25,336 nucleotides of DNA, from positions 1 to 25,336 of IMG/VR virus record IMGVR_UViG_3300010885_005762. One strand, written 5' to 3'. The notes below the pieces were generated by a model that saw nothing but the letters and a program-made list of their open reading frames with translations, searched no databases and was not told where the DNA came from. Below, piece after piece: positions 724 to 17,118 of this stretch (position 1 is the first letter of the stretch; every line of letters begins with the position of its first letter). This DNA is from a virus. Both the position numbers and the translations under genes were made by a program.

Positions 724-1001
724 TGGACACAGACCCAAAACTAAACCCCGACAGTTTCCCTCGATGGATGCTGTTTTCAGCTCAGCAGATGCCTGAAGGG
801 TGGCTTATGCTACCAAAGCGCACAATGATGACCGGTGAACGCGAACAGATAGTAACAAGTCGGGTATGTACTAAATGCAAAGATGAAAAACCATTTAGTG
901 CTTTTTGGGTGTTGAAAAGCGGGGCATACGATTCTTGGTGCAAGAATTGTAGGAATTTTGTAAAACGAGAAAGAACAAAACGCAATCGGAATAAAAAATG
1001 A
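723..1001 (+). CDS. Small zinc-knuckle protein, 92 aa (treble-clef-like, no nuclease half)
   Basis: ATG 723 is preferred over ATG 720 because GGAGG at 714-718 lies 4 nt from it but only 1 nt from the other. Cys49-x2-Cys52 (CTKC) and Cys73-x2-Cys76 (CKNC) form a probable four-Cys zinc site. The spacing and the flanking sequence (KDEKPFSAFW) resemble the zinc-binding N-terminal module often fused to HNH or endonuclease VII-type nucleases. Here the protein ends after a short, very basic tail (residues 79-92, mostly Lys/Arg) with no nuclease domain. DNA or RNA binding is a reasonable inference. Its stop overlaps the nuclease gene at 998. It could be a truncated HNH protein or a stand-alone zinc adaptor. 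Confidence 0.75.
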   Translation: MDTDPKLNPDSFPRWMLFSAQQMPEGWLMLPKRTMMTGEREQIVTSRVCTKCKDEKPFSAFWVLKSGAYDSWCKNCRNFVKRERTKRNRNKK

Positions 1002-1672
1002 CCGAGCTAATAACATGGTCGTACAGCAGCATCAAGACCTTTGACCAATGCCCCAAGAAGTATTACCACTTACGTGTAGCTAAGGATGTGAAAGACGAAG
1101 GTAGCGAAGCTACGCTATACGGTAACGAGGTACACAAGGCTGCGGAAGAATACATAAAGAACGGCATTCCCCTACCTGCCAAGTTTAATTTTATGCAGGA
1201 TGTGTTGGATACTCTGAATCAGATTGAAGGCGAGAAACATTGTGAAATCAAACTGGGGGTAAGACGGACAAGCACGGGCTACGAGCCGTGTAAGTTTTTT
1301 GACAAGGATGTGTGGTGGCGGGGTATTGCTGACCTGCTTATCCTGCAAGACAACACAGCATTCCTAGTTGATTACAAGACAAGTAAGAACGCAAAGTACG
1401 CGGACACCAAGCAGCTAGACATAGTTGCCGCCGCAGTATTCCTGCACTTCCCGCAGATTGAGGTGATTAAATCAGCATTGTTGTTTGTTGTTAGTAAAGA
1501 ATTCGTATCGAAGCGGCATGACATCGCTAACCGCGATTCGTACCTAGCAACATTTGAACCCGAGTTAGACAGACTTACGGCTGCACAGGAATCCGGAGTG
1601 TGGAATGCAGTATCCAGTCCGCTGTGCGGATGGTGTCCAGTAACGATGTGCGAACACCACAGGAGAAGGTAA
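998..1672 (+). CDS. PD-(D/E)XK nuclease of the RecB/Cas4/AddB type with probable Fe-S cluster, 224 aa
   Basis: The order of motifs matches RecB-like exonucleases of the PDDEXK superfamily. There is an N-terminal SSIKTFDQCPKKYY box with Cys18, a conserved His46 (GNEVHKAA), Asp112 (GIADLLI), Asp125-x-Lys127 (LVDYKTS) and the QxDxxA helix starting at Gln139. Cys210, Cys213 and Cys218 at the C-terminus, together with Cys18, make the four-Cys arrangement that holds a 4Fe-4S cluster in Cas4 and AddB. In phages such proteins usually resect or process DNA ends during recombination and replication. The gene lies in an operon with HNH, SNF2 and primase genes. No cas genes are nearby, so a CRISPR role is not suggested. 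The start is ATG 998 in an ATGA overlap. Confidence 0.9.
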   Translation: MTELITWSYSSIKTFDQCPKKYYHLRVAKDVKDEGSEATLYGNEVHKAAEEYIKNGIPLPAKFNFMQDVLDTLNQIEGEKHCEIKLGVRRTSTGYEPCKFFDKDVWWRGIADLLILQDNTAFLVDYKTSKNAKYADTKQLDIVAAAVFLHFPQIEVIKSALLFVVSKEFVSKRHDIANRDSYLATFEPELDRLTAAQESGVWNAVSSPLCGWCPVTMCEHHRRR

Positions 1673-2031: not shown

Positions 2032-2298
2032 ATGCCCTACGTGAACAAACCCCGCCCGTACAAGAAAGAGTACGAGCAGTACCAAGGAACCGAAGAACAG
2101 AAGAAAAACCGAGCCGTGCGTAATGCTGCTCGGCGCAAGTTGATGCGCACCGGTGGCGTAAGTAAAGGTGATGGCAAGGATGTGGATCATGTGAAACCCA
2201 TATCAAAGGGTGGCACAAATAAGGGTGGCAACCTGCGGGTTAAAAGCGCAAGTGCCAACCGGTCATTCAAACGGAACTCAGATAGCTCAGTGAAGTAA
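2032..2298 (+). CDS. HNH endonuclease-like protein, 88 aa
   Basis: The protein is small and very basic. Residues 50-79 carry an HNH-type beta-beta-alpha core: the Asp52-His53 pair (DVDHVKP), Gly60-Gly61, Asn67 (GNLRV) and Asn76 (SANRSF). These positions fit the metal-binding and catalytic residues of HNH nucleases. The extra zinc-binding CxxC pairs of many HNH proteins are absent. The N-terminal half (YKKEYEQYQ through NAARRKLMR) is a Lys/Arg-rich helix likely to grip DNA. Phage HNH proteins act as nicking enzymes, homing endonucleases or packaging helpers. The replication context argues for a nick or recombination role, but homing cannot be excluded. The start is ATG 2032, 3 nt after the previous stop, with a GAGGAG site. 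Confidence 0.8.
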   Translation: MPYVNKPRPYKKEYEQYQGTEEQKKNRAVRNAARRKLMRTGGVSKGDGKDVDHVKPISKGGTNKGGNLRVKSASANRSFKRNSDSSVK

Positions 2299-3860
2299 TG
2301 GAAATTGTAGATAACAAAGTACTGCTTATACGTACTAAACGACCACACCTGATAACCGAGCAGGTGAAAAAGAGTGCGGTTGTAAATCAAGAACAAGACA
2401 TATACGAAGTGGCAGTGAATTGGGGACTAACCGAATCGCAAGCACTAGCAAAGTTGCGTATCAAAGACGTACCATCGACCATAACGCGCGACTACAAGTG
2501 GACGGGCAAGTTGCAACCGTTCGCTCACCAAAAACAGACTTCTTCATTTCTGACCCTGTATCGCAAGGGCTTTTGCTTTAACGAGCAGGGCACGGGTAAA
2601 ACTGCATCGGCGATATGGGCTGCGGACTACCTGATGAAGTTGGGTGAAGTACGTCGCGTGTTAGTCATATGCCCGCTATCAATTATGAAGTCGGCGTGGC
2701 AGAACGACCTGTTTAAGTTTGCAATGCACCGTAGCTGCTCCATAGCGCACGGTGATCACAAGGCGCGGGCTAAGATCATCAACGCAAAGTCTGACTTCGT
2801 AATCATTAACTTTGACGGGTTAGCGGTGGTGAAGGACGAGATCATGGATGACGGTACGTTCGACCTGATCATCGTTGACGAAGCCAATGCCTATAAGAAT
2901 GCGCAAACTAATAGGTGGAAGGTATTACGAGATATTTCCGCTAAAGTTAAGTGGATGTGGATGATGACCGGCACACCGGCTGCGCAGTCTCCGCTTGATG
3001 CCTATGGGTTAGCCAAGCTGATTAACCCCGAGGGTATTCCTAAGTACTACGGTCAATTCCGTGATCAGGTGATGTACAAGGTGTCGCAGTATCGGTGGAT
3101 ACCCAAACCACAGGCTGAGAGTGTGGTGCATAAAGCCCTGCAACCCGCCATTCGGTTTGAAAAGAAAGACTGTTTAGATCTGCCGGAGTTGACATTTGTT
3201 GAACGCGATGCGCCGCTAACCGCCCAGCAAGCTAAATTTTACCGCACGTTGAAAAAACAAATGATGCTTACCACAGCGGGGGAGTCTGTTACCGCAGTCA
3301 ACGCAGCGACTAACATCAACAAACTTCTGCAAATATCTGGCGGTGCAGTTTATTCAGATAGCAGAGAAGTCATTGAGTTTGACGTCAGCAACCGGCTGCA
3401 AGTCATCTTGGAAGTGATTGAGGAGTCGTCCCACAAAGTGTTGGTGTTCGTGCCGTTTACGCACACCATCGAGCTACTTAAAACTTTCTTGGATAAACAC
3501 AACATCACATCTGAAGTTATCAATGGTCAAGTATCTGTAAACAAACGCAGCGAGCACGTAAAAAACTTTCAGGAAAAGCAAGACCCCCACGTACTTATTA
3601 TTCAACCGCAAGCAGCGTCACACGGTTTGACCCTGACTGCTGCGAACACAGTGATTTGGTATGCACCGGTCACGAGCGTGGAGACGTACCTTCAAGCCAA
3701 CGCGCGAATTAACCGTCCCGGACAAAAGAATGCCATGACCGTGGTACATATTAAAGGTAGTGAAGTTGAAGACAAGCTGTACAACATGCTGCAAAACAAC
3801 ATCAACAACCACAATAAAATAATAGACCTATACAAACAGGAGGTGGAAGATACAGTTTGA
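2298..3860 (+). CDS. SNF2-type superfamily 2 DNA helicase/translocase, 520 aa
   Basis: The classical SF2 motifs appear in order. They are LQPFAHQ (about 72-78), Walker A GTGKT (98-102), a Walker B variant DEAN (194-197, where DEAH or DEAQ is usual), TGTP (224-227), motif V ASHGLTLTAAN (440-450) and motif VI QANARINRPGQ (466-476). The NRPGQ box is typical of SNF2/RapA-like translocases. The length fits a two-RecA-fold core with little accessory sequence. Such phage enzymes use ATP to translocate on dsDNA and are linked to replication restart or recombination, and this one sits among a nuclease, an HNH protein and a primase. ATG 2298 overlaps the previous stop (TAATG). A promoter for the next unit overlaps its stop codon. 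Confidence 0.93.
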   Translation: MEIVDNKVLLIRTKRPHLITEQVKKSAVVNQEQDIYEVAVNWGLTESQALAKLRIKDVPSTITRDYKWTGKLQPFAHQKQTSSFLTLYRKGFCFNEQGTGKTASAIWAADYLMKLGEVRRVLVICPLSIMKSAWQNDLFKFAMHRSCSIAHGDHKARAKIINAKSDFVIINFDGLAVVKDEIMDDGTFDLIIVDEANAYKNAQTNRWKVLRDISAKVKWMWMMTGTPAAQSPLDAYGLAKLINPEGIPKYYGQFRDQVMYKVSQYRWIPKPQAESVVHKALQPAIRFEKKDCLDLPELTFVERDAPLTAQQAKFYRTLKKQMMLTTAGESVTAVNAATNINKLLQISGGAVYSDSREVIEFDVSNRLQVILEVIEESSHKVLVFVPFTHTIELLKTFLDKHNITSEVINGQVSVNKRSEHVKNFQEKQDPHVLIIQPQAASHGLTLTAANTVIWYAPVTSVETYLQANARINRPGQKNAMTVVHIKGSEVEDKLYNMLQNNINNHNKIIDLYKQEVEDTV

Positions 3861-8622: not shown

Positions 8623-8653
8623 ACCCCCGCCCTAAAAAGCGGGGGTTTTTTAT
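8623..8653 (+). terminator. Strong intrinsic terminator closing the plus-strand operon
   Basis: ACCCCCGC (8623-8630) pairs with GCGGGGGT (8639-8646) around an 8-nt loop (CCTAAAAA), followed by TTTTTATT. The 8-bp, mostly GC stem with a U-tract is a textbook plus-strand terminator. The minus-strand giant gene ends at 8653, so the site separates two convergent units. On the minus strand the same hairpin is followed by TAAGAGG and not a U-run, so it should not terminate leftward transcripts efficiently. The remaining gap (8552-8622) is pyrimidine-rich and holds no convincing gene. Confidence 0.9.
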
Positions 8654-11600
8654 TACTCCCTACGGAACCTATCTGAGAGGGGGTACACAAACGGAGCTTC
8701 ACGCTTAGATACAGATAGCCCTTCAAACGCTTCAGCACGACGCTTGGCTCTGTTGCTGAGGGACTTGTTAACTGTATCGCCGGTGATTGGGTTCACAGAA
8801 CCGTTCTTAACGTTGAACTTATCAATCTCTTCTAATAGCTTGTCTATCTTTGCTTCGTTCGCATCAGAATCATCTTCATCGTAACGCTGTACAGCCAAAT
8901 CAAGTTTATTCAATAGCCGTGAACGATCCTTCTCGATCTCAGTGATCATCTGCTTGGCTTTGAAATTAAACTTCTGGATCTCAGCTACCTCAGTGCTTTG
9001 GAAACCAAGTGCCTGTGCAAGCAGCTTGCCAGTGGTGTAGTACTCAGCAGGTTTAATTTCTACACCTTGCTTGGTCTTCAATCCTTCAGCGTTTAAGCGA
9101 TAAGCTACTGCGCTACCACGCAAGAACGCAGGAAGTATTTTTTCTAGCCCGCGATTGAAATGCCCGCTGTTAAAGTCATCAAGCGCACTGGCAACCTGAC
9201 TACCAGCACTGGCTAAAGGTCCCCCGAATGTATTTATCAGCATCTCTTGGAACGCACCCTTTGCATCATCCGCAGGTGTGTCATCACGGAACCACAAGCC
9301 ATCAAGTGACGTGCTAGCGCCGATATTCAAATCAGTTAGTGCCGATATGGGACCCAGCTCCACCGAACGTTGAAGCGTATTAGCCTGTTCTTCCGTTAAG
9401 CCTAACGCACCCGCAAGGCTGCTACCTGCACCGAAGTAATGGGGGATAAACCACTCGCGGAACCATATGTCTAGGTTGCGCTTACCAAGTGGGTTACCTT
9501 CATCGTCTTCATCGTAGTCTTCTTCATCCTCGCCACGTAGGAGATCACGGATACCTTCAGAAAGACCCATGATCAAGGAATACAAGGGAAGACCGGTAAC
9601 TCCTGCAAAAGCAGCGGTCATTCCTATCGTGCCAAAGAATTTAATCGCACATTCGCGTTTCTCTTCTTTATTAAGATACGGCAACATCCCGTAAAAATTA
9701 CGTATTAGATACGACGTTACTTGCAACGGGTAAGACAAGAACTGCGTAGCAATCTTACCTACGGGGGACTTCATAACCCGAGGCTTGTTGTATTGGGTGT
9801 AATTAAATAAAGAGTCGTACGTTATATCCATAGCCTTTTTAACGGCTGCTTGGAATGCTTCCGTGTCCGACTTATTAGCTTTCTTCTGCCGTGCGTACTC
9901 TAGCTCGAACGTAGACATATACATCGTCTCACGCGAAATGCGTTCTAGATGGTGAAAAGCACCCGACATGAAGTTGCCAACAAACCGTAAAGTTTTTCTT
10001 GTTGTACCTTGATACGTAGCAGTTGGTGCTTTTGCACGAGACGTCATATCCGAAGCATACGTAGACATGAACAAATCGCGGTCATCTGCATACTTCCACG
10101 CACGCTTAAGCATCTTGCGGTAAGACAAGTTCGGATGGCTATTTACGTAGCTAGAGTCATTGATTGAAGGCTGACCCCAATTAGTTGTCACGTTACCTGC
10201 GGCATCCCTCTTGGTTAGCCCCATTGTGCGGAACAACATGGAGTACCTACCTGAAACACGAGCGGTGTCTACCCCGCCATACTCAGCTACGAGGGTGGGC
10301 AAGCCAATCAACGGCAACTGGGTCATCTGCACCAACGCAGACTTAGGTGCGGTCAACAGATAGTAGAACACTAATTGGTTGCCAACACTTGCTAGCCTAT
10401 CCCAATCAAGACCATCGGTTGTGCGGGGCGTCATTTCAGAACCCACACGCATGGCGATCTCATCGACAAAAGCATTTAGCTTTAACTTGTCGGGGTTACC
10501 TGCAAGCTCTGCGTAAGCCGACCCAAGCGCGTTACGAATCCTATCTGAGTACTCAAGCCGCGATAGCTGGTTAGCAGCGGTATGTTGCGACACAATAAAG
10601 TTACGGATCACATCCGCGCTAAAGCCAGTCTTACCTTGACGATGCGTAAACTTACGACGGATATCTTTCTCCGGCAGCGTCATCAGGTACATCTGATAGA
10701 TTTGATCTTTAACTGCCTCAAGGTCGGTCAGCTTATTTTTATCCAGCATTTCAAAGATGCCCTTTAGCATCTGACTGGATTCAACAACCTGAGTGCGCAT
10801 TTGACGCAAGTCATCCCCGACGTCAATGTCCCCGTCTTCAATCATCTTTTCTAACGAGCGCTTATCACCAGCTTTTTGCAGTTCTTCAACTCGCGCTGCT
10901 ACAGCGTTGTTACGAGCCGCAGCCGACTCAAACATATAGAACTCGCCAGCTTTGCCTTTACCTAAACGGAACCAGTGATTACCGTAACGCATTAAGGGGA
11001 AGTAGGCTTCCAGCTTGCGGGCTTCTTGGAAGGTCTGCGTAATTGACGCTATTAGCTTGCCCTTCGGGGTAGAAGCATCTTTTATGTCACCCGGCACACT
11101 TGAAGCAGCAATCTTGGCGAGTAGCAATCGCTCATGTAGGTCGAATGTATCTTGGTATTTCTGCTTAACCGCTTTATAAATACTCTGTGCTTGAGTACCA
11201 CCCTTCATAGCACCGAGCTGACTCCACATACTGTAAGCACGTTTAATTTGGTTCTGTCGTTCTGTAACGCGACCCTTTGCGGCTATCTTAGATCTGCCAG
11301 TGACAGCAGGATCGTTGTATCTAGCTTCCCGCGCTTTCAGCTCGGCATCATTTGCTAGCGCCGTAGTTACATCTGGATACTTAGTAGGGTCTACTTCTAA
11401 CAACGTAGTGGCGTGCATGACGTCGCCTAAGTAACGACCAGTCATCTCATACTTTTGCGCAAATGAAACCCATTCGGGGACAAACTTAGCGATGTCGTTA
11501 ATCATACGAGTACGCATCGCTGCCATCTCTTGCACGTAGTCATTTACGTACTTGATATTGACAATTTTGTCTCCGATCCAGCGCGTAATGTCTTCCGTAG

Positions 11601-14600
11601 TCAGCGTTGGCAGAATCTTGCGTAGCGTGCCTACTTTCAAAGCGCCATACACAGCCTTAAGTAAACGCAGTGCATCCTTTGAATTTCGGGTCTGCGCCAT
11701 TAGCTGCCCGATAGACGCATTAAGCAACGAGCCTTTAGAAGACCTATCTATCTTGTTTTGCAGCCTGTCTACCTTGTTTGCTTTTTTAGCAAACGCAGCT
11801 TCTTGGTTAGCGGTCGCAGCTATCCGTGGGGCTTCCATAATCTGATCAGTAACCGTAATCAAATCAAGGAAAGCGTTGGACTGGTTGTCCCCCATGTTGA
11901 ACATCTTACGCACTGCATCAGAAAACTTAGACCACATGCCACCCTTACGGGCTTCGGCTGCAGAAAATCTACCGGATACATTTTGCAAAAAGTTCTGCAT
12001 CACAGGCAGCGTCAAACCATATGACACAAACTCTGCCAAGTCAGTAAACGCGCCAACCTGTAGCAACTGATCCAGCGCGGGAGAACTCTTACCGAAACCG
12101 GAAAGAACCGTGTAGAAATTCCTAGCGCTATCCATTATGCGCTTCAGTTCTTCAATTGCTTTTCGGGTTGCCTCATCTACGGATTTAGGATTAGCCATCC
12201 ATGCACGAATCTTATTTAGCGTAGCGCCGTGCAATGCTTCGTGCAAAAGGGTAACGTTATCTAAACCTTCAGTCGCATCAAGGTAGATGGTGTCGTTTGA
12301 TGGGGAGTACATACCCCCTGCGTCTTCAAACTGCTCGCGTAACGAGTCGTTGGGGATTTCAAACTCGGGGTCATAAACGATTACAAGCTTTGTGCCCTTA
12401 ACAAATTTCTTAAGGCGTTTAGCCAACAGTCGTTCAAACACATTGCCCGTAGTGGCGATATGCTCAAGAGCTTCTACAGCCGTAGTAAATTTAGCAAGCT
12501 CCGGATTAGGGTCTGTACTTGCCGTAGTGCCCTTCTCAGATCGTGCTACGTCTTGTTTGCTGGCTTCAAAGGCACGTTTAGCTGCATTTCGTTGACCTTC
12601 CGTCATTGCGTCAACAGCCGCCCGTGCTGTCTTACCCGGTTTGTTGTTACGGTTAGCTGGGTTAGCACCAATAGCGTATAGCTCAGCACGAAGAAGTTCG
12701 TTCTGCCGTTCTTTCTCGTTTACTGCAAGCTGCAACCCTTCCACCGTGTCGTAGTCATTAGGGTTTGGTTCCTCAAGCAGTTGCTTGTTGATTTTTTCTA
12801 CCCGCCGACCAGTATCACGAATGATCCCAGCGTTGTAATCACGGGTGGCCTCATATAGCGCCTGTTCTTCAGGGGTACGTACAATTTTCTTACGCCCACG
12901 TCTACCTTTAGGTTTTTCACCGGCAGGAGCTTGTGTTTCGGTCGTGGGTTTAACTACTTCAGTAGGTGTTGGTGTAACTACTTCCGTAGGCGTTGCCGCT
13001 GTTGCCGTTGTTGCCGCTATTCCGGTCGCAGGCGTAGCGCTGCCTTCTTCAAAAGTAAACGGTTTTCCAGCGGGGGTACCCGTATCTTCAACTTCTTCAA
13101 ATACTTCACCCACAGCGGTATCAATCGCAATCTGCGGTTGAGCGCCATCAAGGACTAATTCATTAGCCCTAGCAAGGATTTGATCGGCTTCGTTTGGCTC
13201 GTATGTCTGACGGATCTCGGTTTCAAACGGGGCTAGTGTATCGACGAGTCGCGTTGTTCCCGCTCCAGCGACATCAGTAGATGTGCTAAGTAATCCCAAT
13301 CCTTCGGGCGTAGTTGTTGTAAGCACTCCGGCAGTTTGGGCTGGTGCGCCTTCCCCGCCAGCCACAGAAACGCTAGGCTGACTTCCTCCGGTGACAGATT
13401 GTCCAAGCTCACTTTCAATACCTCCTGAGGCTAAAATGCTACCCGCCGTTTTAAAGGCTTCTACTTCGTCCATGCCATCACTGACAAGCCGCTCAACTAT
13501 TGCATCAAATTGAGGGGCTGCACCAGCAACATTCTTTTGCGTTTCTACCTCACGTACCTGACGTTCAACTTCCCGTTTTACAAGCTGCTCAGTGTAATCT
13601 TGTAATGCCTTTTGCCCTACTGCAGTGCTTACGTTTACGCCACTACCAGTAAGACTACCTGCCGCTTCCGATGCGGCAGCATTAAATACACGTTTTAAAT
13701 TTTTGTTAGACAGCACCTCACCGACTTGCTCACCAAGAGCAAATTCACCGGCAATCTGAGTAGCTTCTTGCGCACCACCTGTAAGTCCTTCTTCAGCGAG
13801 TTCTCTAGGTGTCTTTTTAAGTGCGGCAGCAGCAGCTTCTCTTTTTGTTTCGTACTTGATTGCAGCTTTACCGGCTTCTTTTGCAAACTGATTACGTAGC
13901 AAAGTGCCAACAACACCGAACATATCTAATGCACCGGAACCCACAGCTACAGCCATATTTACATCGCCGCTAGAGCGGATGTAGTCAGCAATCTTGTCAG
14001 CTTGTTCTTTAGGGGGTAACCCTTTGGTTCGCTCCATGATGTACTCAAGGCGGTTACCAAGAGTTTCACCATAAGCTAACGTAGTACCAACACCCAACGC
14101 ACCGGGTAGGCTACCAACTGTACCGCCAAGCATCACTGCGGCAATCTGCGGACCACCTGCACCTACGTTGTACGCAAGCCAGTTACTGAAATCGGTAATA
14201 CCGCGAATATCAAGCGCTTCCGGAGTGCGACCTTTATACTGTTCGTTTTCTTTTTGAAACTGCTTGTATTTCTCAATACCAAAACGAATTGTTTCTGCAC
14301 GGGAAGAAGTATCTTCAAACCGGTTTTGTTTCATTTGCGCCCGAGCTTCGGGGGTAGCACGCAAATAAGTTGAAGCTGACTGCAGGTTGTAGCCTTTTTG
14401 CCGTGCTTCAGCAGGTGTGGTTACTTCGCCACGATCAATCGCTTCATACGTTCCGAGCGCAGTTTTGTTGAAGTCAATTGAGCTAACATCACGCTGTAGT
14501 CCTAGCTGCAGTGGCAAACCTTCCACCATCTGCTTAACTGAGCCTGTAAAGCCTTTCTTTGCTTCTTCTATCGGGGCAAACTCAGATGAAGGCTTGGCGG

Positions 14601-14766
14601 CGTCTTCGAAAGAAAAAGTTTCTTCTCGTTTTGCAGGTGCTGCAGGAGTGGCGGCAGGAGCAGCGGCGGGAGCCATTGCTTTCTCAAATGAAAACCCTGC
14701 TGGGGGCGTAGCCGCAACGGGAGCAAGAGGCGTTGAAGCCTCTTCAAACGAGAAACCGTTAGCCAT
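8653..14766 (-). CDS. Giant internal virion / polyvalent-type protein with HEALH metallopeptidase motif, 2037 aa
   Basis: The start is ATG 14766-14764, sharing one base with the upstream stop (TAATG). The N-terminus carries three FSFE-type repeats in Ala/Pro linkers (F5, F25, F51), with a fourth at F570. Next come a Gly-rich hydrophobic stretch (around 195-240) and a Thr/Pro/Ala-rich linker with a basic GRRGRKK patch (about 570-640). The metallopeptidase motif TLLHEALHG follows (His842, Glu843, His846, with Glu912 in LAEFVSYG as likely third ligand). The rest is a long helical C-terminal half with hydrophobic segments near 1480-1500 and 1705-1735, ending YPLSDRFRRE. Length, position and composition fit large phage internal or ejection proteins (T7 gp16 role) and polyvalent proteins carried into the host with DNA. 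No lysozyme or transglycosylase signature was seen. Confidence 0.85.
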   Translation of the reverse strand: MANGFSFEEASTPLAPVAATPPAGFSFEKAMAPAAAPAATPAAPAKREETFSFEDAAKPSSEFAPIEEAKKGFTGSVKQMVEGLPLQLGLQRDVSSIDFNKTALGTYEAIDRGEVTTPAEARQKGYNLQSASTYLRATPEARAQMKQNRFEDTSSRAETIRFGIEKYKQFQKENEQYKGRTPEALDIRGITDFSNWLAYNVGAGGPQIAAVMLGGTVGSLPGALGVGTTLAYGETLGNRLEYIMERTKGLPPKEQADKIADYIRSSGDVNMAVAVGSGALDMFGVVGTLLRNQFAKEAGKAAIKYETKREAAAAALKKTPRELAEEGLTGGAQEATQIAGEFALGEQVGEVLSNKNLKRVFNAAASEAAGSLTGSGVNVSTAVGQKALQDYTEQLVKREVERQVREVETQKNVAGAAPQFDAIVERLVSDGMDEVEAFKTAGSILASGGIESELGQSVTGGSQPSVSVAGGEGAPAQTAGVLTTTTPEGLGLLSTSTDVAGAGTTRLVDTLAPFETEIRQTYEPNEADQILARANELVLDGAQPQIAIDTAVGEVFEEVEDTGTPAGKPFTFEEGSATPATGIAATTATAATPTEVVTPTPTEVVKPTTETQAPAGEKPKGRRGRKKIVRTPEEQALYEATRDYNAGIIRDTGRRVEKINKQLLEEPNPNDYDTVEGLQLAVNEKERQNELLRAELYAIGANPANRNNKPGKTARAAVDAMTEGQRNAAKRAFEASKQDVARSEKGTTASTDPNPELAKFTTAVEALEHIATTGNVFERLLAKRLKKFVKGTKLVIVYDPEFEIPNDSLREQFEDAGGMYSPSNDTIYLDATEGLDNVTLLHEALHGATLNKIRAWMANPKSVDEATRKAIEELKRIMDSARNFYTVLSGFGKSSPALDQLLQVGAFTDLAEFVSYGLTLPVMQNFLQNVSGRFSAAEARKGGMWSKFSDAVRKMFNMGDNQSNAFLDLITVTDQIMEAPRIAATANQEAAFAKKANKVDRLQNKIDRSSKGSLLNASIGQLMAQTRNSKDALRLLKAVYGALKVGTLRKILPTLTTEDITRWIGDKIVNIKYVNDYVQEMAAMRTRMINDIAKFVPEWVSFAQKYEMTGRYLGDVMHATTLLEVDPTKYPDVTTALANDAELKAREARYNDPAVTGRSKIAAKGRVTERQNQIKRAYSMWSQLGAMKGGTQAQSIYKAVKQKYQDTFDLHERLLLAKIAASSVPGDIKDASTPKGKLIASITQTFQEARKLEAYFPLMRYGNHWFRLGKGKAGEFYMFESAAARNNAVAARVEELQKAGDKRSLEKMIEDGDIDVGDDLRQMRTQVVESSQMLKGIFEMLDKNKLTDLEAVKDQIYQMYLMTLPEKDIRRKFTHRQGKTGFSADVIRNFIVSQHTAANQLSRLEYSDRIRNALGSAYAELAGNPDKLKLNAFVDEIAMRVGSEMTPRTTDGLDWDRLASVGNQLVFYYLLTAPKSALVQMTQLPLIGLPTLVAEYGGVDTARVSGRYSMLFRTMGLTKRDAAGNVTTNWGQPSINDSSYVNSHPNLSYRKMLKRAWKYADDRDLFMSTYASDMTSRAKAPTATYQGTTRKTLRFVGNFMSGAFHHLERISRETMYMSTFELEYARQKKANKSDTEAFQAAVKKAMDITYDSLFNYTQYNKPRVMKSPVGKIATQFLSYPLQVTSYLIRNFYGMLPYLNKEEKRECAIKFFGTIGMTAAFAGVTGLPLYSLIMGLSEGIRDLLRGEDEEDYDEDDEGNPLGKRNLDIWFREWFIPHYFGAGSSLAGALGLTEEQANTLQRSVELGPISALTDLNIGASTSLDGLWFRDDTPADDAKGAFQEMLINTFGGPLASAGSQVASALDDFNSGHFNRGLEKILPAFLRGSAVAYRLNAEGLKTKQGVEIKPAEYYTTGKLLAQALGFQSTEVAEIQKFNFKAKQMITEIEKDRSRLLNKLDLAVQRYDEDDSDANEAKIDKLLEEIDKFNVKNGSVNPITGDTVNKSLSNRAKRRAEAFEGLSVSKREAPFVYPLSDRFRRE
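14599..14754 (-). repeat. Three F-S-F-E-x-A peptide repeats at the N-terminus of the giant virion protein
   Basis: FSFEEA (residues 5-10), FSFEKA (25-30) and FSFEDA (51-56) are separated by 14-20 residues of Ala/Pro/Thr-rich sequence. A fourth, more distant copy, FTFEEG, lies at residues 570-575 (DNA 13042-13059). The conserved aromatic-acidic core in disordered linkers looks like a short binding motif and not a folded repeat. Confidence 0.8.
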
Positions 14767-16178
14767 TAACGTATGGGGATAAATTGAGAGCCATCCCAAA
14801 TTGCTGGCCCTCTTTGCGTTGCATAGACTTTCCCTTCAACAGCCTCCGCTTTAGTTTTAGGCATCGGTAATGGATTACCCGTACTACCCGAAGGGCCCGT
14901 AACTCTAGTAGGTGCAGTTTGAGCGGGTGCAGCCGGTTGTGCTGGAGCTACACGTGCTCCACGTAACCGATCAGTTTCTTTAGTCACTAAGCCATCGTAG
15001 TAATCTTGAGCAAGAGTAGTTGGCGTACCTTTTTCTTTGTTAGCCTTATCTTGCTTCTGCAAAGCTCTCAGTTCTTTACTCTGTGGGGAGTTCCAATTTT
15101 CTACCGCTTTAGCAATGTTGTCTCGTGCTTTATCCCCGAGATCAGTACCTGCTTTTGTACCCGCAATCTCTGCTTGTGATGCAGCGGCTCCAGCCCCAGT
15201 AAGTGCAGCCGTAGCTCTGGCTTGTGATGCACCATAAAGCGCAAGATATTTATCTGCACCGCGTTGTTTAAGGACAGACTCCGGAGTTTTAGTGTCGCCA
15301 GCTTCACGTGCAGCCATAACATAATCAGCTACGTAGCTACGCATATCCGTAGGCTTACCCGCAGCGATGAGGCGATCCCGCTCAGACTGGTACATCTTTT
15401 CACCCATCTTGACTGCTTCCAACTCCTCAGCACGTTCTTGGCGCTCCAAGTCAGCACGAGCTTTCATGGTGGTTTCTTCAGCCGTACGGCGGGCTTTTGC
15501 CGCTTCAACAAGTGCTGGCGCCGCTTTAGCTGCACCTGCTGAAATATTCGATAAGGCGTTAGGCGAAGTACCAGAAGCGATCTGCGAACCAAGCGAGATT
15601 AAAAACTCATTAAAGCTTTCACCCTTTTGCTTTTCTGCACGAGACGATGCGCCCTTCAAATATTCCCTGTAGGCTTCGGTTTCAGAACGTGGCACTGAGG
15701 AAATCGCTTCTCTTGCTGCTTTAACGTATTCCTGTAAACCACCAAGTCTTGAAGGTTGCGTTGCAGGCTGAGCGTATAACCCAGTACCTGCGGCTTCGTC
15801 TTGCTGTACAAGCATCCTGTTAATTTTGTCTTCGACGCTACCAGCATCTGCAAAAGCAACAATTCCACCACCTGCAAACGAATCTTCGTTGTACATGCTT
15901 TCAGGTACGGGTAAATCAGCAACACCACCCGAAGGCGCAGCTCCTAATCCCGCCATCTGTGGGCGGGGGGAGAGAACCTGTTCGGCTACAGTTTGCGTAG
16001 GAGCCTGCTCTTGTGCCATAGCACCGCGCATGCGGTCGATAAACATACCAGCAAGGACGGCAGAAGTAGGGTCAATAATCCCCATAGCAGCGGCTTGCTG
16101 AATACGACGTTTATCACCCCCGTACTCTTTAGCGACTTCCTCAGGCGCTTGGAGGCTGTAAGGTTTTGTCATTGCCAT
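14766..16178 (-). CDS. Internal virion (ejection) protein, 470 aa
   Basis: The start is ATG 16178, with AAGAGG about 7 nt upstream. The N-terminus (about 19-50) has YGGDKRRIQQAAAMG and a hydrophobic helix with MFIDRMR, a block typical of uncultured aquatic phage virion proteins. FAGGGIVAFADAG follows from residue 101. The middle (about 190-270) is an Ala/Glu/Lys-rich, probably coiled-coil region (KARRTAEETTMKARADLE), followed by a Pro/Ala/Thr-rich linker and a short C-terminal domain (VYATQRGPAIWDGSQFIPI). Position, between a hydrophobic 308-aa protein and the giant protein, and composition match the T7 internal core set (gp14, gp15, gp16), making it a gp15-like candidate. There is no sequence-level proof of homology. 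Confidence 0.7.
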   Translation of the reverse strand: MAMTKPYSLQAPEEVAKEYGGDKRRIQQAAAMGIIDPTSAVLAGMFIDRMRGAMAQEQAPTQTVAEQVLSPRPQMAGLGAAPSGGVADLPVPESMYNEDSFAGGGIVAFADAGSVEDKINRMLVQQDEAAGTGLYAQPATQPSRLGGLQEYVKAAREAISSVPRSETEAYREYLKGASSRAEKQKGESFNEFLISLGSQIASGTSPNALSNISAGAAKAAPALVEAAKARRTAEETTMKARADLERQERAEELEAVKMGEKMYQSERDRLIAAGKPTDMRSYVADYVMAAREAGDTKTPESVLKQRGADKYLALYGASQARATAALTGAGAAASQAEIAGTKAGTDLGDKARDNIAKAVENWNSPQSKELRALQKQDKANKEKGTPTTLAQDYYDGLVTKETDRLRGARVAPAQPAAPAQTAPTRVTGPSGSTGNPLPMPKTKAEAVEGKVYATQRGPAIWDGSQFIPIR

Positions 16179-16191
16179 GATTGCCTCTTAC

Positions 16192-17118
16192 TTAGGTCTT
16201 TGCAAGGTTGTAAAGGCCAAGACCTGCTAGACCTAAACCACCTACTTGTGATGCAAGGGATGGGGGTGGCACAGCCGTAGTAGCCGTAGAACTCAACCCA
16301 ACTGGTAGCCCACGTAATATATTGCTGTAATAACCCAACTGCTCCATTGGGTAGTCACGCTGGCGTAGGAAATCTGCGTATGCTTGATCAAGACGCTGCT
16401 GTGCAAGACTGCGTTGTTCTGCACCTGCTGTAGATTGCGCCGAGATACGCTGGAGTTTTGCCTGTTGCTCTGCAGAGCCTATGTTTCCTAACTGCGCACC
16501 AAGCTGTCCTGCTTGACCCAGACCTTGAAGACCGAGGTTGGCACCGAACTGTTGATTACGCATGGCTTGGTCATATGCCGACTGTGTGCCTAATGCTTGA
16601 ATACCAGCTAGTTGGTTTTGAAGATTACGTTGGCCTTCAGCTTCAACAATCGCATGACGTGAACCACCAAATGCACCTGAACGTGCAGCGGCAGCACCCA
16701 TACCGGGGAGCCCACGCGAGTAATCTTTGATGGCCTGTTCTTTTTGGTAGTCCACCACATTTTGCATGTAGGGAGACATATATGCAGAAACGGCGTTAGG
16801 GTTGGTCGCCATGTTTTCATATGCAGCGCCAGCACCCAAACTACCTAACCCAGAAAGACCAGTTAATTGTGTTGCGCCAGCAAACTGCGTAGGCGTCGTT
16901 AGCCCCGCTGTTTCTTGTTGAGCAGAAACTTGCCCCGGCGCAAATTCAGCAATACGTTCGGTTTGGTATGGCTGATACGGACGATAGGACTCAGACTGCG
17001 CCCGGTTCATTAAGTTTTCAAAATACGGACGTGCGTACTCCGGCAGGTTGCTAGTCGTCGATGTTGTCGTTACCTGCTGAGGCCCCGATGATGCGGGTGC
17101 TGGACTTCCCTTACCCAT
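16192..17118 (-). CDS. Internal virion (ejection) protein, T7 gp14-like candidate, 308 aa
   Basis: ATG 17118 overlaps the previous gene by 8 nt and follows an AGGAG site. The N-terminus is Ser/Thr/Pro-rich (SSGPQQVTTTSTTS) and then reads LPEYARPYFENLM, a common start of phage internal core proteins. The middle is Gln/Gly/Ala-rich and likely helical and flexible (ANLGLQGLGQAGQLGAQLG). The segment DFLRQRDYPMEQLGYY is followed by a Gly/Leu-rich hydrophobic end (VGGLGLAGLGLYNLAK) able to enter a membrane. T7 gp14 forms the outer-membrane part of the ejection channel, and size, order and composition fit that role here. This is inferred from context. Confidence 0.7.
   Translation of the reverse strand: MGKGSPAPASSGPQQVTTTSTTSNLPEYARPYFENLMNRAQSESYRPYQPYQTERIAEFAPGQVSAQQETAGLTTPTQFAGATQLTGLSGLGSLGAGAAYENMATNPNAVSAYMSPYMQNVVDYQKEQAIKDYSRGLPGMGAAAARSGAFGGSRHAIVEAEGQRNLQNQLAGIQALGTQSAYDQAMRNQQFGANLGLQGLGQAGQLGAQLGNIGSAEQQAKLQRISAQSTAGAEQRSLAQQRLDQAYADFLRQRDYPMEQLGYYSNILRGLPVGLSSTATTAVPPPSLASQVGGLGLAGLGLYNLAKT

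What the first reader, a model, noticed from the sequence alone, without database searches (positions are those of the whole stretch)
12037..12243. HEALH zinc metallopeptidase motif inside the giant ejection protein
His842-Glu843-x2-His846 lies after a hydrophobic strand (TLLHEALHG), with Glu912 in LAEFVSYG about 66 residues later as a possible third ligand. If active, a protease would be delivered into the cell envelope or cytoplasm with the DNA, instead of the transglycosylase known in T7 gp16. It might process the other ejected proteins or attack a host defence protein.
Basis: partly seen in the sequence, partly recalled or inferred. Interest (0 to 1): 0.6.

Follow-up and report, generated by a model that had tools for sequence, protein, structure and literature searches.

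The report
Zinc-protease domain in phage ejection protein
A giant phage protein, probably injected into the host with the DNA, carries a well-conserved zinc-protease-like domain that most likely cuts the giant protein itself; domains of this kind were predicted before, in phage N4 and other multi-domain phage proteins, so this is a solid new member rather than a new kind of thing.

Summary
The ~2,040-aa protein (8653-14799, minus strand) has HEALH at 12243-12229 and the proposed third ligand Glu912 at 12033-12031. In 63 non-redundant relatives both His and the catalytic Glu are invariant and Glu912 is kept in 62, including loci not selected for that residue. A confident AlphaFold2 model (pLDDT 91.7) has the zincin layout: N-terminal helix, three strands, HExxH helix, second helix with Glu912. 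The nearest solved folds are zincins, but only weakly. The domain is homologous to the HExxH (C1) domain of the phage N4 virion RNA polymerase and to phiKMV gp37, and matches the 'zincin-like MPTase' of polyvalent proteins predicted in 2017. It is a new member of a known kind. What I add: the gene is last in a conserved ejection-protein cluster; the N-terminus varies while peptidase plus C-terminus stay constant; three relatives carry other HExxH domains in the same slot, which favours cis-processing; the 'endolysin' part of phiKMV/PhiM1-type ejection proteins contains this domain; and a Limnohabitans phage has both transglycosylase and peptidase, so 'instead of transglycosylase' is not general. 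Zinc binding, proteolysis and substrate are untested.

The parts
8653..14766 (-). Giant last gene of the ejection cluster; polyvalent-type protein, 2037 aa from ATG 14766 (2048 from TTG 14799)
   Evidence: ORF and translation; TAATG overlap with upstream gene; same place in 48 of 49 related loci, 1.2-2.4 kb downstream of a PHROG_4287 ejection-protein homologue
11770..12492 (-). Zincin-like metallopeptidase domain (residues 770-1010 from TTG)
   Evidence: AF2 model pLDDT 91.7, pTM 0.90; PHROG_2206 match 5e-17; 63 non-redundant relatives
12229..12243 (-). HEALH: predicted zinc ligands His842, His846 and general base Glu843
   Evidence: 63/63 conserved; lies in helix 79-100 of the model
12031..12033 (-). 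Glu912, predicted third zinc ligand (LAEFVSYG)
   Evidence: 62/63 conserved; lies in helix 152-161 of the model
11107..11619 (-). LPD39, large polyvalent protein associated domain (residues 1061-1231)
   Evidence: Pfam PF18858, 40.3 bits against cut-off 27
9511..11007 (-). PLxRFG 'tail-700' domain (residues 1265-1763), with the motif PLMRYG
   Evidence: NCBIfam NF032893, 315 bits against cut-off 100; motif in relatives
14766..16178 (-). 470-aa protein directly upstream, probable second ejection/core protein
   Evidence: synteny: found upstream in 26 of 49 loci; function inferred
16192..17118 (-). 308-aa DNA ejection protein homologue
   Evidence: PHROG_4287 'DNA ejection protein' 3.5e-27; present in 48 of 49 loci

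Best explanation
It is a zincin-like (HExxH...E, gluzincin-type) metallopeptidase domain inside a giant polyvalent-type ejection protein, the same domain as in N4 virion RNA polymerase and phiKMV gp37. Proposed mechanism: His842, His846 and Glu912 bind Zn2+, and Glu843 activates water. Because the domain stands between a variable N-terminal part and a constant LPD39/PLxRFG C-terminal part, it most likely cleaves its own chain (or neighbouring copies) during packaging or after ejection, freeing the N-terminal part from the C-terminal packaging/delivery part. Shown here: homology, conservation, predicted fold, gene position, domain swaps. Inferred: zinc, activity, cis cleavage, timing, and that the protein is in the virion. 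My split: zincin domain 0.95, active protease about 0.75, cis-processing given activity about 0.65.
For: H, E, H 63/63 and Glu912 62/63, with no selection for the residue tested in sub-samples. Model pLDDT 91.7 with the predicted MPTase layout, which matches the description in PMC5512222. PHROG_2206 (virion RNA polymerase) matches exactly this domain at 5e-17, and phiKMV gp37 at 2.5e-17; hhalign to the N4 domain 95.9%. Structure neighbours: N4-type vRNAPs and LPD proteins in the viral library, 20 with E <= 1e-3. LPD39 and PLxRFG. Slot argument: of 51 non-redundant ORFs found through the C-terminal part alone, 43 reach far enough upstream to show the slot (one other is a broken ORF whose peptidase lies in the ORF before it, one more is cut inside the domain); all with a complete slot carry an HExxH domain, 39 of this family and 3 of other types: HE[LM]GH...EWYAD in two, WLM-like HEASH in one. 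Those types are not detectably related in sequence (hhalign 0.6%). N-terminal segments are recognisable in only 20-23 of 67 relatives, peptidase and C-terminus in 63-67.
Against: No cleavage product, zinc or virion mass-spectrometry data exist for this phage. N4 vRNAP is packaged uncleaved although it has the domain (PMC5512222). The last ejection-cluster gene of three syntenic isolates has no HExxH, so the peptidase is not needed for ejection in that wider group. Solved-structure matches are weak (best E 0.16).
Confidence: 0.62

Rival explanations
1. An active protease that works in trans on a host protein, for example a defence or envelope protein, after ejection.
For: Relatives carry effector-like domains next to it: ART-PolyVal directly upstream in L112, HATPase domains in L066, L072 and L131. 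The C-terminal part is shared with DarB-like antirestriction proteins. PMC5512222 lists host targeting as one possibility.
Against: The domain is nearly constant in phages with very different N-terminal parts, and different peptidases fill the same slot, which is easier to explain by a self-processing job than by one host target.
Confidence: 0.22
2. A catalytically silent, structural zinc-binding module of the internal core; the residues hold metal to stabilise the fold.
For: Solved or solvable as a folded part of packaged cores (8vb2, 9sfn matches). N4 region with the domain is needed for encapsidation (PMC5512222).
Against: The general-base Glu843 is not a zinc ligand in zincins, yet is 63/63 conserved; replacement by other HExxH domains that also keep the Glu.
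Confidence: 0.09
3. A peptidoglycan hydrolase ('endolysin/exotransglycosylase domain'), as such proteins are labelled in databases and in the PhiM1 structure paper.
For: Database labels of phiKMV-type relatives; PhiM1 TEP Asp268-Asp528 is called endolysin/exotransglycosidase-like.
Against: HExxH...E zincin residues and layout; no Pfam lysozyme or SLT match in the window protein or in phiKMV gp37; where an SLT domain exists it is a separate N-terminal domain (L008 residues 16-118, peptidase motif at 609).
Confidence: 0.04
4. Not a protease but another HExxH enzyme, such as an alpha-ketoglutarate-HExxH hydroxylase, which the N4 structure paper mentions as a motif-sharing group.
For: The N4 paper names both groups for the HExxH of domain C1 (PMC12633501).
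Against: Glu as third ligand on the following helix and the zincin layout with lethal-factor-like nearest solved folds.
Confidence: 0.03

Closest known systems
Zincin-like MPTase domains of polyvalent proteins (Iyer et al. 2017, PMC5512222), including the N4 virion RNA polymerase domain (C1, residues 2124-2375 in PMC12633501)
   Same: HExxH on one helix and Glu on a later helix, three-stranded sheet with N-terminal helix, giant multi-domain phage protein with LPD domains, detectable homology to N4 (hhalign 95.9%, PHROG_2206 5e-17)
   Different: No RNA polymerase domain detected here; C-terminal part is LPD39/PLxRFG of the DarB-like type rather than the N4 C2 domain
phiKMV/LUZ19 gp37 and the matching PDB chain 9sfn_G (1337 aa, 'Internal virion protein')
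   Same: Homologous peptidase domain with LHEAVHAAT and the Glu kept; last large protein of the ejection cluster
   Different: Rest of the protein is not recognisably alike; labelled 'endolysin domain' in databases
Phage PhiM1 tetrameric ejection protein gp48 (PDB 8vb2_A; PMC11440229)
   Same: Profile match 2.1e-10 with LHEAAHAKT and HEF, inside the domain Asp268-Asp528
   Different: Authors call the domain endolysin/exotransglycosidase-like; my model did not retrieve this chain by fold in the rows shown
Anthrax lethal factor zincin domain (peptidase family M34), comparison of fold only
   Same: Best solved-structure match of both peptidase families found here; also the link used in PMC5512222
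   Different: Weak match (E 0.16; TM 0.33), no Pfam sequence match; not a member of that family on this evidence
T7 gp16
   Same: Position as last, largest ejection protein and presumed injection
   Different: No SLT transglycosylase domain detected; no sequence match

Membership tests
Zincin-like MPTase of polyvalent proteins | HExxH motif on the first C-terminal helix, conserved | tested here: met
   63/63; model helix 79-100 holds motif 84-88
Zincin-like MPTase of polyvalent proteins | Conserved Glu on the second C-terminal helix | tested here: met
   62/63; model helix 152-161 holds residue 154
Zincin-like MPTase of polyvalent proteins | Three-stranded sheet with an N-terminal helix before the active-site helix | tested here: met
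   Predicted elements H18-31, E35-39, E58-63, E68-72, H79-100
Zincin-like MPTase of polyvalent proteins | Part of a large multi-domain protein with polyvalent-associated domains | tested here: met
   LPD39 above cut-off, PLxRFG, DarB-like C-terminus; ART-PolyVal in relative L112
Zincin-like MPTase of polyvalent proteins | Homology to a named member | tested here: met
   N4 vRNAP: hhalign 95.9%, PHROG_2206 5e-17 over this domain only
Zincin-like MPTase of polyvalent proteins | Zinc binding and peptide-bond cleavage | not testable with these tools
   Needs purified protein
Podovirus ejection (internal virion) protein | Last large gene of the ejection cluster | tested here: met
   Downstream of PHROG_4287 homologue here and in 48 of 49 loci; same place as the 'DNA transfer protein' of phage DSL-LC04
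Podovirus ejection (internal virion) protein | Protein present in the virion and ejected | not testable with these tools
   No proteomics for this uncultured phage
T7 gp16-type lytic transglycosylase ejection protein | SLT transglycosylase domain | tested here: not met
   No Pfam, PHROG or NCBIfam match in the giant protein
N4-type virion RNA polymerase | RNA polymerase domain | tested here: not met
   PHROG_2206 match is limited to residues 682-1023, i.e. the peptidase region
Anthrax lethal factor family (M34) | Sequence-family match | tested here: not met
   No Pfam match in the window domain; fold match only, E 0.16
Endolysin / exotransglycosylase | Glycan-hydrolase domain | tested here: not met
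   None detected in the window protein or phiKMV gp37

The most novel reading that the evidence does not exclude
The giant ejection proteins have a dedicated peptidase slot between a variable N-terminal part and a constant PLxRFG/LPD39 C-terminal part, filled by at least three separately acquired HExxH metallopeptidases; self-cleavage there is a general step of ejection-protein maturation, and the 'endolysin' domains of phiKMV- and PhiM1-type ejectosomes are in truth proteases of the same family.
Probability: 0.3. Interest if true: 0.62.

Novelty: new member of a known kind. Interest (0 to 1): 0.4.

Why it matters
Many short-tailed phages put a conserved, apparently intact metallopeptidase in an injected protein, yet no substrate is known. 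The finding gives a large family with clear catalytic residues, a natural control (slot swaps between different HExxH domains), and a cultured model in N4 with E. coli K-12 in which one active-site change would test a prediction standing since 2017. It also suggests that a common database label ('endolysin domain') for phiKMV-type ejection proteins, and one published structural assignment in PhiM1, should be re-examined.

Tried and rejected
Single-sequence searches with the domain found no IMG/VR relative; the full protein and then a four-row alignment were needed. The nine-row alignment was too divergent to scan with. Genome contigs gave no relative, so no prophage host clue. Pfam has no model that hits the window domain. 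Comparing A3 with A1 by hhalign was discarded as evidence because both contain the window sequence. The weak PDB sequence hits 8y6v, 8frf, 3d8l, 4v91 look like chance (no HExxH alignment where alignments were shown). I expected 8vb2_A to come up by fold; it is not in the 50 rows shown, possibly because its loops there are disordered (R280-S288, S321-A356, V427-D446 in PMC11440229), so its fold identity is not proven here. No paper for 9SFN was found. The relatives' last gene in DSL-LC04, CRP-901 and HTVC023P showed neither HExxH nor similarity.

Full report
WHAT WAS CHECKED. The window is a 25,336-base viral record, classed as a contig of IMG/VR. The minus-strand ORF 8653-14799 encodes 2,048 aa from TTG, or 2,037 from the ATG at 14766, which overlaps the stop of the upstream gene as TAATG. 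HEALH is at 12243-12229, the only HExxH in the protein, and Glu912 is encoded at 12033-12031, just outside the interval given. A shuffled protein of this composition has an HExxH in 0.85% of cases, so the motif alone is only modest evidence.

CONSERVATION. tblastn of the region against 50,697 phage records gave 111 records, nearly all phiKMV-type Pseudomonas phages plus Xanthomonas, Salmonella, Variovorax and Limnohabitans phages, all under 60% identity. Full-length P0001 gave four IMG/VR relatives. In nine diverse proteins HExxH, a Thr three residues on, and the later Glu are invariant. A scan with four of them gave 74 loci, 63 non-redundant domains with the window. H842, E843, H846: 63/63. 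Glu912: 62/63, one Asp. The scan used two patterns, one over each motif, so I split the loci: 24 found only by the Glu pattern keep H, E, H in 24/24; 18 found only by the HExxH pattern keep Glu in 17/18. Mean column identity is 36%. Both the metal ligands and the non-ligand general base are under strong constraint.

FOLD. AlphaFold2 with 61 sequences: pLDDT 91.7, pTM 0.90; helix 18-31, strands 35-39, 58-63, 68-72, helix 79-100 with HEALH at 84-88, helix 152-161 with Glu at 154. This is the layout described for polyvalent MPTases in PMC5512222. Foldseek against the PDB puts lethal factor zincin first (E 0.16, prob 0.60), with MATCAP, ACE2 and ACE, all zincins, further down; none is significant alone. 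Against viral models 20 hits have E <= 1e-3, including a virion RNA polymerase and several LPD proteins; a 'zincin protease' fusion of a crAss-like phage appears at E 7e-3. I could not measure ligand distances, because coordinates are not released by the tool.

WHAT THE PROTEIN IS. Pfam LPD39 (1061-1231), NCBIfam PLxRFG tail-700 (1265-1763), PHROG DarB-like C-terminus (1090-2033) and PHROG_2206 'virion RNA polymerase' at 682-1023 only. The domain alone matches PHROG_2206 at 5e-17, and phiKMV gp37 matches it at 2.5e-17. The N4 vRNAP domain, with IHELVHAST and NEFMAWGL, aligns by hhalign at 95.9%. The N4 structure preprint (PMC12633501) reports a conserved HExxH in its C1 domain, residues 2124-2375. 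The PDB has two sequence relatives: 9sfn_G (1337 aa, internal virion protein, 1.8e-8 with the window alone) and 8vb2_A (PhiM1 gp48, 2.1e-10 with the nine-row profile); both keep HExxH and Glu. The 9sfn profile value (3.2e-64) is inflated because phiKMV gp37 is in the profile.

CONTEXT. Upstream genes include a PHROG_4287 'DNA ejection protein' (16192-17118) and a structural protein matched in podovirus-like phages DSL-LC04, CRP-901 and HTVC023P. In 49 related loci with room upstream, the ejection-protein homologue is upstream in 48 and the 446-aa protein in 45. In DSL-LC04 the corresponding last gene is annotated 'DNA transfer protein' and is followed on the other strand by nuclease and helicase genes, as in the window. 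That gene, and the counterparts in CRP-901 and HTVC023P, have no HExxH. So the giant protein occupies the third-ejection-protein position, but the peptidase is not universal there.

THE SLOT. I searched again with the C-terminal part only. Of 51 non-redundant ORFs, 7 are cut by the contig end before the slot, one (L100) is cut inside the domain, and one (L121) is a broken ORF whose peptidase lies in the preceding ORF of the same contig (L014). The other 42 all have an HExxH domain: 39 of this family, and L120, L123 and L131 of other types. L120 and L123 have HE[LM]GH...EWYAD; L131 has a WLM-like match, below Pfam's cut-off. The EWYAD family is itself large (50 non-redundant loci, HExxH 50/50); 23 of its 50 ORFs also have a detectable C-terminal match, often 385-445 residues downstream. 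It has no profile similarity to the first family (hhalign 0.6%); its model is less certain (pLDDT 77) and also finds lethal factor first (E 0.017). In 67 long ORFs the N-terminal segments match the window's in 20-23, the peptidase in 66, the C-terminal segments in 67; HExxH lies a median 420 residues before the C-terminal block while the N-terminal part before HExxH runs from 608 to 1884 residues. The set is partly selected by these same domains, so the N/C contrast is supportive rather than independent; the cross-checks (peptidase-selected loci have the C-terminus, C-terminus-selected loci have a peptidase) are independent of each other.

READING. A constant peptidase placed between a variable N-terminal part and a constant C-terminal part, replaceable by other HExxH domains, is best explained by a need for proteolysis itself, most simply self-processing. 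PMC5512222 proposed self-processing, processing after injection, or host targeting, and noted that P1 DdrB is cleaved before packaging whereas N4 vRNAP is packaged whole. For the window phage, after-packaging or after-injection cleavage seems the better guess, by analogy with N4; this is inference. Relatives with ART and HATPase domains upstream show that the N-terminal part can carry payload-like domains.

ON THE TRANSGLYCOSYLASE. No transglycosylase is detected in the window protein, but the Limnohabitans phage protein has an SLT domain at 16-118 and the peptidase motif at 609, so they are separate modules. The 'endolysin domain' label of phiKMV gp37 has no Pfam support, and the PhiM1 domain Asp268-Asp528 described as endolysin/exotransglycosidase-like contains HEAAH and the Glu. 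I take these as likely mislabels, unproven until the maps are inspected.

LIMITS. IMG/VR contigs are fragments and partly redundant; no host, proteomics or biochemistry exists for this phage; all functional steps are inferred.

Noticed in passing
PDB 8vb2_A residues 378-513 (PhiM1 gp48); L007 3759-7772 (phiKMV gp37): The 'endolysin/exotransglycosidase-like' part of published podophage ejection proteins contains the HExxH...E motif of this metallopeptidase family; probable mislabel.
   Followed up: partly
L142-L198 (alignment A6): A second, sequence-unrelated family HE[LM]GHxH...F.EWYAD in the same kind of giant phage proteins, 50 non-redundant loci, HExxH 50/50.
   Followed up: partly
L131 1-8328 (+): Giant relative with a GHKL/HATPase domain and a WLM-like HEASH motif in the peptidase slot.
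   Followed up: partly
L112 1108-8349 (+): ART-PolyVal (ADP-ribosyltransferase) domain directly upstream of the peptidase in a relative.
   Followed up: no
window 14766-13018 (-), residues 15, 35, 61 and 580 of the giant protein: Short repeated motif GFSFEEA / GFSFEKA / TFSFEDA / PFTFEEG; not found in the 20 relatives checked; possibly a binding motif.
   Followed up: partly
L006 2289-9725 (+): Xanthomonas phage CP2 giant protein has a second HExxH (MHEMGH) about 340 residues after the first, and LPD22 at its N-terminus.
   Followed up: no
L008 3201-7931 (+): Limnohabitans phage protein combines an SLT transglycosylase domain and the metallopeptidase.
   Followed up: partly
L014 / L121 (one contig): The giant ORF is split into a 583-aa ORF with the peptidase and an 834-aa ORF with the C-terminal part: frameshift, sequencing error or natural split.
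   Followed up: no
window 998-1672, 2032-2298, 2298-3860 (+): PD-(D/E)XK-like nuclease, small HNH-like protein and SNF2-type helicase in a row on the opposite strand, an arrangement like that in phage DSL-LC04.
   Followed up: partly
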